The position numbers were made by a program, and so were the translations under genes. From Thermoanaerobaculum sp. (lineage in GTDB: Bacteria; Acidobacteriota; Thermoanaerobaculia; Multivoradales; UBA5704), in the NCBI GenBank assembly GCA_021154885.1, contig JAJKHS010000032.1, positions 1 to 46,832 of the forward strand: 46,832 nt of DNA. The letters run 5' to 3'. The notes under the pieces were generated by a model. That model was not told the DNA's origin, did not search any database, and saw only the letters and a program-made list of their open reading frames with translations. The first letter of the stretch is position 1, and each line of letters starts with the position of its first letter. Positions 16,020-21,076 of the stretch are shown in pieces.

Positions 16020-16590
16020 GTGCGAATCCTCCAACGACCGGTACGAGCCGTCATGGCGCGTGGCTTCGCCGATGGTTCCAGGGCAAACGCGATGCCCGGT
16101 GGAGCCGGGACGCCGGAGGCGCGAGGGGATCTCTCGGAAAACACGGCTCTGCGCAGGGTTTCCAGGGTGGGGCTGGGGTGCATCGAAGAGCGTCGGGGCC
16201 TCTGGCAGCGTATGAGAGAGCATACACCTGTCGGTAGGAACGGTGGCGGTGCTGGAAGGTTTCAGCGGACGGAACGGCGAGCCCCCTGCTCCCCGCCGGC
16301 CGGATTCTCCTCTCGGTCCTCCATGCCCGCCGCGGAGACACCGCTCCGATTCCACACCGACCCTGGGCGTCACCACCTCACCGTTCAGAAGGCTCGAGGC
16401 TGGAAAGACGGCCGGGCCTCCAAGCCGTCGGATCGGGTCTCTGGACGCCCAGAACCTCTGCTTGAGACACTACGGAAGGCCGTAGAGATATCGGCAGGTT
16501 GGCGATCTTGTCCGGTGGCTTCTCATCGTCTATAGTTGCCTAAGTCCCGGGGTTTCGAAGCAAATCACTGAGCGGAAATGGAGAAACAGT
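16020..16590. other. Intergenic region between divergent barrel operon and RiPP precursor
   Basis: This 571-bp stretch should carry the promoters of the leftward operon and the rightward small peptide gene. Frames here have unbiased, arginine/proline-rich translations and no ribosome site. Apart from the promoter-like pair at 16508-16536 I see no gene or repeat. Confidence 0.5.
16508..16536 (+). promoter_or_regulatory. Candidate sigma-70 promoter for the small precursor peptide
   Basis: TTGTCC and TATAGT are separated by 17 bp, about 55 bp before the ATG of the lanthipeptide-like gene. The match to the TTGACA/TATAAT consensus is good for this GC-rich genome, but it is a visual match only. 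Confidence 0.4.
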
Positions 16591-16761
16591 ATGAAAAAGC
16601 AGATCAAGAAGGTGCAGAGACTCTCGCTGAGCCGTGAAACCCTGAGGCAGCTCGACCTCGGGAAGGACGGCCAGATGAATCATGTGGTGGGGGGAACCGG
16701 TAGCCTGTGTGAGGATACCTGCATTACGTCGCGCCGGCCTTATTGCCCCACGGTGCCGTGA
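16591..16761 (+). CDS. Class I lanthipeptide-like RiPP precursor (orphan)
   Basis: A 56-residue peptide. The leader is Lys/Arg-rich and holds LSLSRETLRQL (11-21), the 'L-x-L-S/K-x-ETLR-x-L' signature of class I lanthipeptide precursors in Acidobacteriota and Bacteroidota. A GG pair at 34-35 in HVVGGTG is a plausible leader boundary. The C-terminal core SLCEDTCITSRRPYCPTVP has three cysteines (40, 44, 52) and five Ser/Thr, suiting thioether rings. AATGGAGA provides a ribosome site about 8 bp before the ATG. No LanB, LanC, protease or exporter gene is visible in this window; fragments of unrelated genes follow directly. It may be processed in trans or be a relic of a lost cluster. Confidence 0.7.
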   Translation: MKKQIKKVQRLSLSRETLRQLDLGKDGQMNHVVGGTGSLCEDTCITSRRPYCPTVP

Positions 16762-16783
16762 GGGTGGCGCGGGCGGGCTGGGA

Positions 16784-16922
16784 GAAGACCTCGCCGATCC
16801 TTTTGAGCGTGGTCCTACCGTTGGCCTCTGGCCAGTTCTCTTTCGGGGTGGGATTGAGCCAGACGGAGTGGCGGAAGCGGTCGCGGAGGCGCTCGAGCCA
16901 GCGCAGGCTGGGCTCGGCGTCG
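16784..16922 (-). pseudogene. Duplicated fragment of the vWA-protein gene
   Basis: These 139 bp align without gaps to 19949-20087, near the 3' end of the vWA gene 3 kb away, with about 10 mismatches by eye (about 93% identity). It contains the segment corresponding to the SLRWLERLRDRFRHSVWLNP region. Both ends stop abruptly, so it is a broken copy rather than a gene. It begins 22 bp after the stop of the precursor peptide, on the opposite strand. Confidence 0.8.
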
Positions 16923-17018
16923 GGCCGTGCCCTGGCCTCCTAGAGAGCTCGCCCCTCTCTGCGTTTACCGTGGCTGGTAGATCGGGATGAGACCGAGCTT
17001 GGCCATGCCCGCGCCGGG

Positions 17019-17201
17019 TCTGCCGAGATCGTCGACGCCACTCCCTACGCCGTGGGCAGCATCCGCGCCACCTACGAGAAGTACCCCAACGCCCGCAAGA
17101 TCCTCCCCGACATGGGGTATGGCGAGCACCAGATCCGCGAGCTGGAAGCGACCATCAACGCCACTCCGGCCGACGTGGTGAAGGCCGTGGTGGGAGCGTG
17201 A
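17019..17201 (+). pseudogene. C-terminal fragment of a cyclic 2,3-diphosphoglycerate synthetase-type GTPase
   Basis: The frame reads SAEIVDATPYAVGSIRATYEK to LPDMGYGEHQIRELEATINA then TPADVV. This matches a conserved internal block of cyclic 2,3-diphosphoglycerate synthetase-like P-loop proteins, where it is normally followed by further residues (TPIDL-like). Here it ends after a few residues (KAVVGA) at a TGA. There is no start codon and no nucleotide-binding N-terminus. I read it as a gene fragment. Confidence 0.6.
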
Positions 17202-17208
17202 TCGGAGA

Positions 17209-17595
17209 ATGATTGGAGAAACCTGGGGCGTCGAGCCCGCCGAGACGGCGATCGCCTTCCCCTGCGATCAAGTCCCCGGCGACTTCGACGCCGACTACCA
17301 TCGGGGCGTGACCGTCCACACCCCGTCCGCCGTCGTCTTCCGCTGGCTCTGCCAGCTCCGTGCCGCGCCGTACAGCTACGACTGGATCGACAACCGCGGC
17401 CAGCAGAGCCCGCGGCAGCTCATACCGGGGCTGGAGAACCTGAAGATCGGCCAGACGGTGATGACCATTTTCGACCTGATCGGCTATCCCCGAGGATTCA
17501 AGGGATGGCTGATGCGCTCTGTGCTGCAGCCGGGAGATCTCGTGATGATGCGGCGGCAGTTGCTGAATCTGAAACAAAGCGCAGAAAGCACATAG
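17209..17595 (+). pseudogene. SRPBCC/START-like protein with an apparent internal deletion
   Basis: The 128-residue frame begins with a well-conserved N-terminus (VFRWLCQLRAAPYSYDWIDN, then LENLKIGQTVMTIFDL) of a roughly 190-residue SRPBCC/polyketide-cyclase-like family. It then jumps directly to what looks like the family's C-terminal helix (GFKGWLMRSVLQPGDLVMMR, then QLLNLK). The central beta strands that form the ligand cavity seem to be missing, while the frame is kept. The ATG is 8 bp after the preceding fragment's stop. A short stable variant cannot be excluded, but the length deficit argues for decay. Confidence 0.5.
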
Positions 17596-17812
17596 TGCCT
17601 ATGTCACTATAGAATCCACGAAGCGTCAATTTAGAGACGCCGGCGGGGGATTCTTGTAGCGGAAATCGGCCGGATTTGCAATCGATCCGCCAAACGGCAC
17701 GAGGCAGGACCGAGAGACCGGTCAAATCTGGAATCTGATATTGAACGTCTGTTCGCCACGGGATGATCGAGGCGGGGCTCGGCGCCCAGAAAAGCCCGAT
17801 ACTCACTATGTC
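17596..17812. other. Intergenic, between convergent genes
   Basis: No gene is seen. A small inverted repeat (ATAGTG, 7-nt loop, CACTAT) at 17592-17610 overlaps the upstream stop codon. Base composition becomes AT-richer from here to about 19400. Confidence 0.4.
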
Positions 17813-19252
17813 TCATCTCCAGAATTGCCACCAAAAACGTCGCCTCGTTACAGCAGGAGTCTTTCTCTTGGGCATAGCATTGAGTTCTTTCCACCTTTCG
17901 TAAACGGCATCCTCCGTATGATCCTCCTCTGCAGAGAGTGTCGTTGCGACGTGGGCGCGAATCCACAATTCAAAAGAATCTGCTACTTTATGATAAACAA
18001 GAGAGCCTTGGGTCCATGAATAGATCGGGGGTTCTTCTTTTACCTCGGGTGCCTTGGCTTTGAACCCAATATCGTTGTGGGCGCTTTTAGCTAGGCAGAC
18101 GAAGCCAGCCAGCTCTCCGCGAGTATCATCGAGAGCCGTCAGCTTGGAAGGATGAAGAATTCTCGTATCCTCACACCAATCCCCCGGACCGAGTGTGCGC
18201 AGAAAGATCTTATAACTTTCCGGCAACCTCGTTCCTAGCTCCAATTCCGCGTCTTCAATTTCAGGATCGGCAATCGGCTTCCCATTAGACCTAAAAATTA
18301 TACCTCGACTACCGTGCTCTCTGGGGTTAAGGTTAGAAGCCGCCCTCAGATATTGCCCAAAATCACCAACTATAGATATTACTCGCGAGCGCTCAAGGCC
18401 TTCAATTTTTTCTATTTCTTTCGAATCACGGCTTCTCAAAAGCAAGCTTCTCTCCCCTTCGTATTGCATAGCCAAGCGTTCTATGTCCATCAGGTGTACC
18501 AGCGCGTTCCTCTTCTTGCGTCGTTGGATAGTCGCCCATGTTAGCAGCAGTTCATAATCTTGATCATCCACAGCATGATGCTTGCCAAGACGTTCCGTCA
18601 CGATCTTACGGGGTATCTTGTACATCTCAAAGGTGCGCCAATTCGCCTCAGGCTTTTTTTCGAAAAATTCACCACTTCCGCGAATAAAATGTCGTCCGTT
18701 GTCGGTGAAGAAATTTATCCTCCCATAGCCCTCAGCAGTCTCGGAACCAATTTCTCTTTTTTCTCCAGACCACTCGTGGACGACTCCCGCAAAATGAAAA
18801 GTCATGCCGGAGCCAACCTTGCTGACGGATGCACCAAAACTACTGAAGTAGGCATTCCGGGTGAGATCTGGTTTAAAATTTATACCATGATATCGATAAG
18901 AATTGTCATTCGTAACATACTCGATACATACTATGCTGTATGGTTCTTCGGAATGCACTCCCTGAAACCAGTATCCTTCGATGCTCGCAGTGCGTGACAC
19001 TAGCCTGCGAAGCGGTCCGAAGCGAAGAGGGGCTTTTAGTAGTAAGAAATCAGTAAGTCTGTGCACGGCCACTGCCAAGGGCAAGACGATAACCCATATC
19101 GCAATGGTGCGATAACTTTCATCTGAACTACCTGAGCTAGCTGGGCTATGTTTCAGGGTGGCATTTAGATATTCAAAAGCCTTGATAGAAAAACTAACTG
19201 CTGCCAATGCGGCAGCCGTTTGCCCTACAGGCTCAAATTCAAGATGCTCCAT
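17813..19252 (-). CDS. Two-TM, beta-rich protein with C-terminal SMI1/KNR4 (SUKH)-like domain
   Basis: A 479-residue protein I do not recognise as a named family. Two membrane helices lie at about 8-28 and 49-72. Residues of about 90-215 are beta-rich (IEGYWFQGVHSEEPYSIVC, then GYGRINFFTDNGRHFIRGSG), an arrangement resembling the 2TM/beta-barrel effector domain of CBASS Cap15-like proteins. After a helical linker, about 330-440 resembles a SUKH domain (EDAELELGTRLPESYKIFLR followed by TLGPGDW), a fold common in immunity proteins against polymorphic toxins. The C-terminus is basic and Trp-rich. GC content is clearly lower than in flanking genes, suggesting transfer. It stands alone, without a cyclase or toxin nearby. 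Domain assignments are by eye. Confidence 0.6.
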   Translation of the reverse strand: MEHLEFEPVGQTAAALAAVSFSIKAFEYLNATLKHSPASSGSSDESYRTIAIWVIVLPLAVAVHRLTDFLLLKAPLRFGPLRRLVSRTASIEGYWFQGVHSEEPYSIVCIEYVTNDNSYRYHGINFKPDLTRNAYFSSFGASVSKVGSGMTFHFAGVVHEWSGEKREIGSETAEGYGRINFFTDNGRHFIRGSGEFFEKKPEANWRTFEMYKIPRKIVTERLGKHHAVDDQDYELLLTWATIQRRKKRNALVHLMDIERLAMQYEGERSLLLRSRDSKEIEKIEGLERSRVISIVGDFGQYLRAASNLNPREHGSRGIIFRSNGKPIADPEIEDAELELGTRLPESYKIFLRTLGPGDWCEDTRILHPSKLTALDDTRGELAGFVCLAKSAHNDIGFKAKAPEVKEEPPIYSWTQGSLVYHKVADSFELWIRAHVATTLSAEEDHTEDAVYERWKELNAMPKRKTPAVTRRRFWWQFWR

Positions 19253-19294
19253 GAAAATTCTCCTTCACTATTGATTGGCCACAGGATTCTATCC

Positions 19295-19311
19295 TGGCGA
19301 ATGATTCGCCA
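19295..19311. promoter_or_regulatory. Perfect 8-bp palindrome upstream of the two-TM/SUKH gene
   Basis: TGGCGAAT-G-ATTCGCCA is a perfect inverted repeat with a 1-nt centre, 43 bp before the start codon of the leftward gene, where an operator would lie. No second copy was noticed in the window. Confidence 0.35.
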
Positions 19312-19338
19312 CTCAGAGATATCGGCTCAGTCTATTAT

Positions 19339-19392
19339 CTATCTCAGTGGGGGCTTCGCCAGCGCCTCACAGACAGATGTATCGAGAAGACA
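19339..19392 (-). pseudogene. vapC: VapC toxin stump (PIN-domain N-terminus only)
   Basis: In the frame next to the 3' end of vapB the sequence reads CLLDTSVCEALAKPPLR and then a stop. The first seven residues match the first strand of PIN-domain toxins (LLDTSV, with the first metal-binding Asp). Nothing of the remaining 110 or so residues is present before the palindrome and the next gene. I infer a deletion that removed the toxin. Confidence 0.45.
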
Positions 19393-19601
19393 CTTCTCCC
19401 GGACCGGTGCGGCCGCCGCCGAGACGCTGGGATGTCGATTTCAAGCTTGACCTTGCCCAGCATGGATTTGAGCTCCTCGATCCGCCTTCGGCGGATCAGC
19501 TCCCGGAGCGAGAGAACGACAGTGTCAGTCTTCGACTTGAATCCCAGAAGGTTCCTCGCCTCGTCCATCAGATCCTCGGGGATGTCCAGGGTCGTACGCA
19601 T
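19344..19601 (-). CDS. vapB: VapB-type antitoxin (orphan)
   Basis: The 85-residue protein starts MRTTLDIPEDLMDEARNLLG, a ribbon-helix-helix DNA-binding antitoxin start. FKSKTDTVVLSLRELIRRR and LGKVKLEIDIPASRRRP follow, the usual body of this VapB family, which normally ends near SRRRP. The last 20 residues (HRSGRSVFSIHLSVRRWRSP) run into what would be the vapC start in another phase, so the C-terminus is probably altered by a frameshift. VapB binds and inhibits the VapC RNase and represses the operon. No full VapC follows. Confidence 0.75.
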   Translation of the reverse strand: MRTTLDIPEDLMDEARNLLGFKSKTDTVVLSLRELIRRRRIEELKSMLGKVKLEIDIPASRRRPHRSGRSVFSIHLSVRRWRSPH

Positions 19602-19662
19602 GAGAAAAGTCTATTTCGTATGCTTCTGCTCGTCAAGCAGGCAGACGTGGAGATGAGCCTCA

Positions 19663-19886
19663 GAGGGTGTCTGGAAAGTATTCAGGCCTGAAGGGCCGTC
19701 CTCCCTCAGCCTGGGGCGCAGCCGAAGATCCCTCAATCCAAGAAGCCCTGACGGGGCGAAATAAAGGCCGGATCACGCCCCTTCGGGGCTGCCGGGGTAT
19801 TTGGATTCCGTGTTCCTGGGGCTGCGCCCCAGGCTGAGGGAGGACGGCCCTTCGGGCCTGAACCACCAGCTTTTCAGACACCCTCC
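19663..19886. mobile_element. MITE-like element with long inverted repeats
   Basis: About 224 bp bounded by inverted ends GAGGGTGTCTGGAAA / GAGGGTGTCTGAAAA. The arms of about 60 bp share an almost identical block (GGGCCGTCCTCCCTCAGCCT). The centre holds a smaller hairpin around GGGGCGAAATAAAGG. It encodes no protein. Its right end stops at the TAG of the vWA gene (19886-19888), so it abuts or supplies that gene's last bases. A REP-type palindrome mobilised in trans is the alternative. Confidence 0.65.
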
Positions 19887-21076
19887 TACTTCCGGTTCAA
19901 CCACTCCACCGCCCGCTTGATCCCGCCCAGGGTGAGGTCCTCCATGCGGAAGACCTCGCCGATCCGTTTCAGAGTGGTCCGTCCGTAGGCCTCGGGCCAG
20001 TTCTCCTTCGGGATGGGATTGAGCCAGACGGAGTGGCGGAAGCGGTCGCGGAGCCGCTCGAGCCAGCGCAGGCTGGGCTCGGCGTCGTTCGTGCCCCAGG
20101 TGATGGCGCCGCCGGGGTAGAGCAACTCCTCGGGGGCCATGGAGGCGTCGCCCAGGATCAACAGCCGCGTCTCCGGCGAGCGCTGGAGGAGCTTCTCGAC
20201 CGGTAGCGGGATGCGTCGCTGCGCGTCCTTGTAGACCGTGCCGTAGATCGTGTTGTGGAAGAAGTAGGTGTCGCGGCGCTTGAAACGGTCCCGCACCTTG
20301 GCGAAGAGGAGCCGGGTCAGGGCCACGTGAGGGAGCATCGAGGTGCCGCCGTTGTCGATCAGCAGCACCACTTCGATTCGGTCCATGAGGTCGCGGCGGA
20401 AGACGAGGTCGATCTCGCCGCCGTTGCGCGCGCTTTCGTAGATGGTGGCGTCGAGGTCGAGCTGGTCGCGCGGCCCCGCCGGCTTCAGACTCTTCAGGGA
20501 GGCCAGGGCCTGGGAGAGGTTGGCGTGGCTTAAGGCTTGGTCGTCCGAGTAGTCGATGTAGCGCCGCTCGCCGATCACTTTCAACGCCGACCGCTTGCCG
20601 CCTTCGCCCATCACCCTCACGCCGCCGCTCGCGTTCCCCGAGTGGCCGAACGGCGAGTTGCCGCCCGTGCCGATCCAGCGGCTGCCGCCGTGGTGGGCCT
20701 CGGTCTGCTGGCGCATCGTCTCCCAGAAGCGCTTCATCAGCTCGTCCGGCGGGAAGGTCCACAGCGCGTGCGGCGGCAGCTCGCCCTTGCGGATGGCCTC
20801 CCTGAGCCAGTCCCGGAACTGCGGCGTGTTGAACAGCTCCGGGTCCCCTTGCGCCACCCGCGGCAGGTCGAGCCCGTAGAAGTGGAAGGCGAAGGCCCGC
20901 TCGTAGGCGTCCACGTGCTCCACCCGGCGGACGAAGGCGAGGCGGGCGAAGAGGAAGAGGGAGTCGAGGTCGGGCGCGAGGCCCCGCTCCAGCCCTTGGT
21001 AGAAGTCGATGGTGTCGGTCAGCGAGACCGGGACGCCGTAATCACGCAGCCTCAGGATGAAGTCATCGAGGAACAC
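19886..21076 (-). CDS. vWA-domain protein (CoxE-like), MoxR partner
   Basis: A 396-residue protein encoded 20 bp after a MoxR ATPase, the usual MoxR/vWA pairing used in metal-cofactor insertion or protein remodelling. The N-terminal part is helical (FLDDFILRLRDYGVPVSLTD). The vWA Rossmann-like domain begins near VEVVLLIDNGGTSMLPHVAL, where the metal site reads DNGGTS rather than classic DxSxS. I chose the GTG at 21076 since no ATG is in frame and GGAG lies upstream; the frame continues upstream only as antisense of the ATPase gene. A 139-bp broken copy of its 3' part is at 16784-16922. The stop codon abuts the MITE-like element. Confidence 0.8.
   Translation of the reverse strand: MFLDDFILRLRDYGVPVSLTDTIDFYQGLERGLAPDLDSLFLFARLAFVRRVEHVDAYERAFAFHFYGLDLPRVAQGDPELFNTPQFRDWLREAIRKGELPPHALWTFPPDELMKRFWETMRQQTEAHHGGSRWIGTGGNSPFGHSGNASGGVRVMGEGGKRSALKVIGERRYIDYSDDQALSHANLSQALASLKSLKPAGPRDQLDLDATIYESARNGGEIDLVFRRDLMDRIEVVLLIDNGGTSMLPHVALTRLLFAKVRDRFKRRDTYFFHNTIYGTVYKDAQRRIPLPVEKLLQRSPETRLLILGDASMAPEELLYPGGAITWGTNDAEPSLRWLERLRDRFRHSVWLNPIPKENWPEAYGRTTLKRIGEVFRMEDLTLGGIKRAVEWLNRK

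What the first reader, a model, noticed from the sequence alone, without database searches (positions are those of the whole stretch)
16591..16761. Orphan class I lanthipeptide-like precursor hidden in a gene graveyard
A 56-codon gene has the leader signature LSLSRETLRQL, a GG boundary and a Cys/Ser/Thr core (SLCEDTCITSRRPYCPTVP), with a promoter-like pair and ribosome site upstream. No modification enzyme lies in the window. It is too short for routine gene callers and could be a substrate processed in trans by a distant LanB/LanC.
Basis: partly seen in the sequence, partly recalled or inferred. Interest (0 to 1): 0.8.

Follow-up and report, generated by a model that had tools for sequence, protein, structure and literature searches.

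The report
Scattered lanthipeptide precursor, one of 54
This tiny gene looks like a real precursor of a ring-bridged (lanthipeptide) natural product, and it is one of about 54 such precursors scattered through the genome of an uncultured acidobacterium with only a few matching enzymes, so one enzyme pair probably serves many distant substrates.

Summary
ORF 16591-16761 (+, 56 aa) has an intact L1a class I lanthipeptide leader (LSLSRETLRQL...VVGG), a Cys/Ser/Thr core, a ribosome site and one promoter-like pair. A leave-one-out model of its paralogs gives 39.4 bits, E 2.8e-8 per million sequences. The genome holds 54 leader-homologous precursors at 45 places on 33 contigs; 1 of 54 lies within 5 kb of a LanB. 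The orthologs of the C75 LanB-LanC pair in two same-genus genomes have no precursor in the 8.5 and 11.3 kb seen, though those genomes carry at least 42 and 34 elsewhere. In seven other genomes of the class, 13 of 16 precursors sit within 3 kb of a LanB. Thirteen cross-genome pairs show purifying selection (omega 0.12-0.47). The window copy lies in about 3.7 kb absent from a sister species, among decayed gene pieces. Best reading: a class I counterpart of the prochlorosins, one LanB/LanC pair modifying dispersed substrates in trans. No chemistry is shown, and selection on this one copy could not be tested.

The parts
16591..16761 (+). Class I lanthipeptide precursor gene, 56 aa, stop included
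16591..16695 (+). Leader, M1-G35 (LSLSRETLRQL ... VVGG); boundary at GG is inferred
   Evidence: NF038153 positions 1-32 on residues 1-35; leader-only leave-one-out 39.4 bits
16696..16758 (+). Core, T36-P56: 3 Cys, 6 Ser/Thr (inferred extent)
   Evidence: sequence; family core composition
16580..16583 (+). GGAG, ribosome-site-like, 7 nt before the start
   Evidence: sequence
16508..16536 (+). Promoter-like pair TTGTCC-17-TATAGT
16236..19906 (.). Segment absent at the same place in sister genome G002 (limits approximate)
16784..16932 (.). Decayed duplicate of the end of the gene at 19773-20762 (second copy at 19949-20096)
   Evidence: 91% over 149 nt; 93% over 139 nt without gaps
17012..17179 (.). 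Gene fragment with an 81% match in G003:C108
14652..16019 (-). Left flanking gene; ortholog at the same place in G002 (61% identity); no Pfam family
19773..20762 (-). Right flanking gene (no Pfam family); its 3' end lies next to the left gene in G002

Best explanation
The ORF is a class I lanthipeptide precursor (LanA) of the L1a, double-glycine type. It belongs to a genome-wide set of about 54 precursors with one conserved leader and very different cores, at about 45 separate places. The shared leader would let the LanB dehydratase and LanC cyclase encoded on contig C75 bind each precursor in trans: LanB dehydrates Ser/Thr using glutamyl-tRNA, LanC closes thioether rings on Cys, and a protease then cuts near GG. 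Shown: the ORF, the family, the dispersal, complete LanB/LanC genes, purifying selection on members of the family, absence of this segment at the same place in a sister species. Inferred: that the C75 pair is the enzyme, that it acts in trans, where the leader is cut, and that this copy is expressed.
For: Leave-one-out score 39.4 bits. 54 precursors, 45 places, 33 contigs; 1 of 54 within 5 kb of a LanB. 49 of 49 aligned members have the LxLx[KRAE][ED][TS]L-type motif; cores 16.6% Cys and 24% Ser+Thr, leaders 0.1% Cys; mean pairwise identity 45% in leaders and 11% in cores outside Cys pairs. C75: LanC and a 1112-aa LanB with both domains. Its orthologs: the one full-size LanB found in G002 (75%), in G001 (73-77%, in two frames) and in G003 (64%). 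No precursor in the 8.5 kb (G001) and 11.3 kb (G002) held around that LanB-LanC pair, against at least 42 and 34 elsewhere. In seven genomes of the class outside this family 13 of 16 precursors lie within 3 kb of a LanB. Omega 0.12-0.47 in 13 pairs.
Against: No chemistry or expression data. The window copy alone scores just under the NF038153 cut-off and ranks 47th of 55 in the census; its leader carries extra residues against the family. No ortholog, so no omega for it. The genome has a second full LanB with its own LanC (C1, 31% identical to C75's) and a split LanB (C83) that could share the work. 5 of 49 members also match an rSAM-RiPP leader model at E <= 0.01. One member (C88) has no Cys in its core. 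No C39 peptidase lies on C75. G000-G002 are draft assemblies, and in G001 and G002 the contig ends beside the LanB.
Confidence: 0.77

Rival explanations
1. A relic: a family member inserted (or left) in a decaying segment, still open by chance and no longer used.
For: It sits among decayed pieces in a segment absent from a sister; its leader is among the more divergent (47th of 55); three Cys is near the family minimum.
Against: Frame, start, GGAG, promoter-like pair and the whole leader motif are intact; coding-like codon-position G+C; leader differences from 47 paralogs concentrate at third positions (0.38, 0.37, 0.62), though that is mostly family history.
Confidence: 0.2
2. Real precursor, but modified by another enzyme: the divergent C1 LanB/LanC, or a radical-SAM enzyme as for TIGR04149 peptides.
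For: C1 encodes a second full LanB and a LanC; TIGR04149 matches the window ORF weakly (14.1 bits against a cut-off of 25) and 5 of 49 members at E <= 0.01.
Against: The C75 LanB is the one conserved across the genus and in G003, and its relatives elsewhere sit beside the same leader type; the C1 LanB has no close counterpart among the compared LanBs. Radical-SAM genes were not searched for.
Confidence: 0.15
3. A chance ORF that merely resembles a leader.
For: Short, and under the curated NCBIfam cut-off by 0.9 bits.
Against: Leave-one-out E 2.8e-8 at Z = 1e6; next-best unrelated small ORF in the window 6.3 bits.
Confidence: 0.01

Closest known systems
Class I lanthipeptide precursors with LxLxKx5L leaders ending in GG (NCBIfam NF038153 lant_leader_L1a; described from Bacteroidetes clusters in PMC7268733)
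   Same: Leader motif, GG or GA boundary in most members, Cys/Ser/Thr core, related LanB enzymes.
   Different: Known ones were found next to LanC/LanB; the largest class I cluster named there has 10 distinct precursors (passages). Here 54 precursors are dispersed over 45 places.
Prochlorosins / synechococsins (ProcA/SyncA with ProcM/SyncM)
   Same: One enzyme for many scattered precursors with a conserved leader and varied cores; 29 and 79 precursors quoted (PMC10783134, passages).
   Different: Those are class II (LanM) with Nif11-type leaders in marine picocyanobacteria; here the leader and enzymes are class I (LanB + LanC) in Acidobacteriota.
tha and aci lanthipeptide clusters of coral Acidobacteriota (PMC13083261)
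   Same: tha comes from a UBA5704-family bacterium; lanthipeptide-type precursors (passages).
   Different: Class II and class III clusters with the precursor gene in the cluster of its synthetase.

Membership tests
Class I lanthipeptide precursor, L1a leader | LxLx(K/R)ETL-type leader homologous to NF038153 | tested here: met
   Profile matched over 1-32 of 32 positions, E 2.5e-4; leave-one-out family model 39.4 bits
Class I lanthipeptide precursor, L1a leader | NCBIfam's annotation cut-off (22 bits) | tested here: inconclusive
   Window ORF 21.1 bits, 0.9 under; in the genome search, 22 of 49 matches reach the cut-off. An annotation threshold, not a biological feature
Class I lanthipeptide precursor, L1a leader | Core with Cys and Ser/Thr able to form thioether rings | tested here: met
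   3 Cys, 6 Ser/Thr in 21 residues; family cores 16.6% Cys
Class I lanthipeptide precursor, L1a leader | LanB and LanC encoded in the genome | tested here: met
   Full LanB and LanC on C75; a second full LanB and LanC on C1
Class I lanthipeptide precursor, L1a leader | Precursor beside its LanB/LanC (usual, not required) | tested here: not met
   None in the window; nearest LanC domain on the contig 128 kb away
Class I lanthipeptide precursor, L1a leader | Dehydrated, thioether-bridged product | not testable with these tools
   Needs co-expression and mass spectrometry
Prochlorosins | Scattered precursors with a shared leader and varied cores | tested here: met
Prochlorosins | Class II LanM (ProcM-like) enzyme and Nif11-type leader | tested here: not met
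   Leader matches a class I family; the candidate enzymes are LanB and LanC
TIGR04149 rSAM-modified RiPP | Score over the curated cut-off (25 bits) | tested here: not met
   14.1 bits for the window ORF; 5 of 49 members match at E <= 0.01

The most novel reading that the evidence does not exclude
A genus of uncultured, UBA5704-related Acidobacteriota runs a class I version of the prochlorosin strategy: one conserved LanB-LanC pair, with no precursor seen beside it in two of three species, modifies dozens of precursors dispersed through the chromosome, and precursors are gained and lost species by species, the window copy being one of them. A Phycisphaerae genome with 22 dispersed precursor-like genes, the nearest about 40 kb from its LanB, would be a second case.
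Probability: 0.65. Interest if true: 0.75.

Novelty: new variant of a known kind. Interest (0 to 1): 0.62.

Why it matters
Cluster-based mining looks for precursors next to the enzymes, so nearly all of these would be missed. If the reading holds, one class I dehydratase-cyclase pair accepts dozens of natural substrates in one cell, which makes the rules of LanB/LanC promiscuity, and the reason a bacterium keeps such a library, directly testable with natural sequences.

Tried and rejected
Shared promoter: sigma-70-like pairs are not enriched upstream of the 54 precursors as a group (mean best score 7.31 against 7.20 in shuffles); the window's pair ties with three others for the best score. Shared mobile cassette: comparing the flanks of the 54 places all against all shows similarity mainly in the leaders, between tandem copies, or in short repeats; I saw no common cassette border. 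Synteny with fetched precursor regions: the window shares only scattered short or partial matches with them and none around the precursor; the matching place was found through the left flanking gene. G001 has no match to that gene and G003's copy lacks the right-hand neighbour in the stretch compared, so only G002 informs. A first LanB comparison took antisense ORFs for some genes; it was redone with the right strands. C39 peptidase as leader protease: three in the genome, none on C75, so the cutting enzyme stays open; an M4-peptidase gene lies near the C75 LanB, role unknown.

Limits of the counts: at most 42 candidates per genome were scored, so the counts are floors and weak members elsewhere could be missed. 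The 54 include C34 (no clear start found) and C36 (weakest, E 0.0029); one row at E 0.29 was dropped (C143:52713), as were two further class II-like leaders near a LanM that one search listed. Members were found by a model of leader and core start, so leader conservation is partly by selection of rows. The 13 pairs are reciprocal best matches (at least 60% identity, 80% coverage), not all checked for synteny; three share members with each other and two lie outside this family of genomes; leader and core were split at residue 30. 'Within 3 kb' was reckoned by me from the coordinates. G002 also has a LanB fragment at a contig end.

Full report
WHAT IS THERE. GGAG lies 7 nt before the start, and the only sigma-70-like pair found in 16200-17000 ends 54 nt upstream of the start codon (shuffles give 0.1). 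Codon-position G+C of 0.55/0.45/0.77 fits a coding frame. NCBIfam's class I lanthipeptide leader model NF038153 matches along its whole length, E 2.5e-4, 21.1 bits, a little under the cut-off of 22; TIGR04149 (rSAM RiPP) gets 14.1 bits against 25. Pfam gives only a chance-level match.

NOT CHANCE. Searches of the genome (G000, 8.2 Mb, 161 contigs; the window is the start of contig C32) with the peptide and with NF038153 gave 22 and 49 matches at E <= 10, 22 of the 49 marked over the cut-off. I fetched the regions, extracted small ORFs and built a family model in rounds; 50 ORFs scored 38 bits or more, the next 22.4 (start codons). A model of 48 members that leaves the window copy out scores it 39.4 bits, E 2.8e-8 for a million sequences; apart from a shorter start of the same ORF, the window's next-best small ORF has 6.3 bits.

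THE FAMILY. A census of the genome with the alignment of 49 (A1) gave 55 rows at E <= 1; I dropped one at E 0.29, leaving 54, of which 53 have E <= 2e-6. They lie at 45 places (merging those within 2 kb) on 33 contigs; 1 of 54 is within 5 kb of a LanB domain and 2 of 54 of a LanC domain; within 10 kb, 2 and 4 (contig breaks could hide some neighbours). All 49 aligned members carry the LxLx[KRAE][ED][TS]L-type motif; 43 of 49 have GG or GA near the boundary, 31 GG; leaders average 45% pairwise identity, cores 11% outside Cys pairs; cores are 16.6% Cys and 24% Ser+Thr. One member, on C88, has no Cys in its core. NF038153 matches 40 of 49 at E <= 0.01, TIGR04149 5, NF038158 3.

THE ENZYMES. Three genes have the Lant_dehydr_N domain. 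That on C75 is a full LanB, 1112 aa with both domains; a LanC and a precursor lie about 1 and 2 kb away, with chorismate synthase and an RNase II gene as neighbours. The LanC sequence has WCYG and ICHG; that these are zinc-ligand motifs is recalled, with C-gap-CH quoted in PMC10352776 (passages). The C1 LanB is a full LanB, 31% identical to the C75 one, with a LanC before it. C83 carries a split LanB: separate N- and C-domain genes. Of 16 LanC-domain matches, five of the ten examined are LanM; two others have kinase domains. The use of glutamyl-tRNA by class I dehydratases is from a search listing (PMC9993889).

RELATIVES. Of 148 genomes of the class, 11 hold a member at E <= 0.01: G000 and G001 42 each (the number scored), G002 34, G003 12, and seven others 16 together. 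In those seven, 13 of 16 lie within 3 kb of a LanB; the three of G024 are on other contigs than its LanB. The C75 LanB is the ortholog of the one full-size LanB found in G002 (75%), in G001 (73-77%, split over two frames) and in G003 (64%). The records of G001 and G002 with this LanB-LanC pair gave no precursor in 8.5 and 11.3 kb; on the LanB side the contig ends. In G003 one of 12 precursors lies about 1.1 kb from the LanB.

OUTSIDE THE CLASS. 109 places in named genomes encode relatives of the C75 LanB and 80 were kept, among them Myxococcota, Paenibacillus, Phycisphaerae, Actinomycetota and Bacteroidota; 42 of 80 loci hold at least one family precursor. Of 26 whole genomes I chose from them, 22 have a match at E <= 0.01; counts are 0 to 11 except G160, a Phycisphaerae genome, with 22. 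I fetched those 22 places: all 22 have open frames with the leader, and many cores are rich in Ala and Ser and poor in Cys. None was found in the 19 kb around its LanB; the nearest on that contig is about 40 kb off. Whether G160 has other LanBs was not searched.

SELECTION. Thirteen reciprocal best pairs between genomes give omega 0.12 to 0.47; pooled leader pS 0.34, pN 0.13; pooled core pS 0.41, pN 0.17. Cores of these pairs are thus constrained too. The window copy is in none of the pairs: its best cross-genome match in the census set is a G089 precursor at 46%. Against the leaders of 47 paralogs its differences are 0.38, 0.37 and 0.62 at codon positions 1 to 3, which is family history as much as its own.

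THE WINDOW LOCUS. The left flanking gene has a 61% ortholog in G002. There that gene and the window's right flanking gene are neighbours, and the leader model finds nothing between them. The window has about 3.7 kb more: the precursor, a decayed 149-bp copy (91%) of the right gene's end, a fragment also present in G003, a SUKH-domain gene, a VapB-like ORF and a palindromic repeat. G+C is 0.50 in 17600-19770 against 0.68-0.71 around. Gain here or loss in the sister is not settled by one sister. About six of the 45 precursor places of G000 look syntenic with precursor places among the regions fetched from G001-G003 (my reading, short contigs), so turnover seems high.

WHAT IT WORKS LIKE. The nearest analogue is the prochlorosin system, where one class II enzyme is credited with 29 (ProcM) or 79 (SyncM) precursors, which can be scattered over the genome (PMC10783134, passages). 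Here leader and enzymes are class I, of the LxLxKx5L-GG type described from Bacteroidetes clusters, where genes within seven of a LanC were searched and the largest class I cluster named has 10 distinct precursors (PMC7268733, passages). Papers on related acidobacteria note BGC-rich genomes (PMC9723581, one passage; the word lanthipeptide does not occur in its main text) and class II and III clusters (PMC13083261, passages). I found no report of dispersed class I precursors in listings of seven searches of the paper library; most subscription papers are not held, and few of the listed papers were opened.

VERDICT. Precursor identity is close to certain; processing in trans by the C75 pair is likely; function of this one copy is probable but untested.

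Noticed in passing
G160: L217 (LanB locus) and L288-L303: A Phycisphaerae genome has 22 leader-family precursor-like genes on nine contigs, the nearest about 40 kb from its LanB; many cores are Ala/Ser-rich and Cys-poor, so another chemistry is possible.
   Followed up: partly
window 19681-19862: Palindromic repeat (43-nt arms, 98% complementary) with similar copies elsewhere in the genome, such as on C13 and C118; a MITE-like element by appearance.
   Followed up: partly
L093:6539-10319 (G000 C83): Split LanB (separate C-domain and N-domain genes) after a short ORF with a Cys/Ser/Thr-rich end; the N-domain protein is 69-70% identical to one in G001. Possibly a separate RiPP cluster.
   Followed up: partly
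L048 (G000 C45:85486-86577 and upstream): A LanC-like domain in one protein with a HopA1-family domain, perhaps related to class V lanthipeptide enzymes (recalled).
   Followed up: no
L150:2961-6702 (G001): Three LanC-like genes in a row between two family precursors, with no LanB seen in the 7.3-kb contig.
   Followed up: no
window 17813-19252: SUKH/SMI1-KNR4-domain gene in a low-G+C part of the segment missing from the sister; may be an immunity-type gene.
   Followed up: no
window 16207-16234: Short stretch with GTATG and CATAC, conserved with the sister although its surroundings have diverged; perhaps a regulatory site.
   Followed up: no
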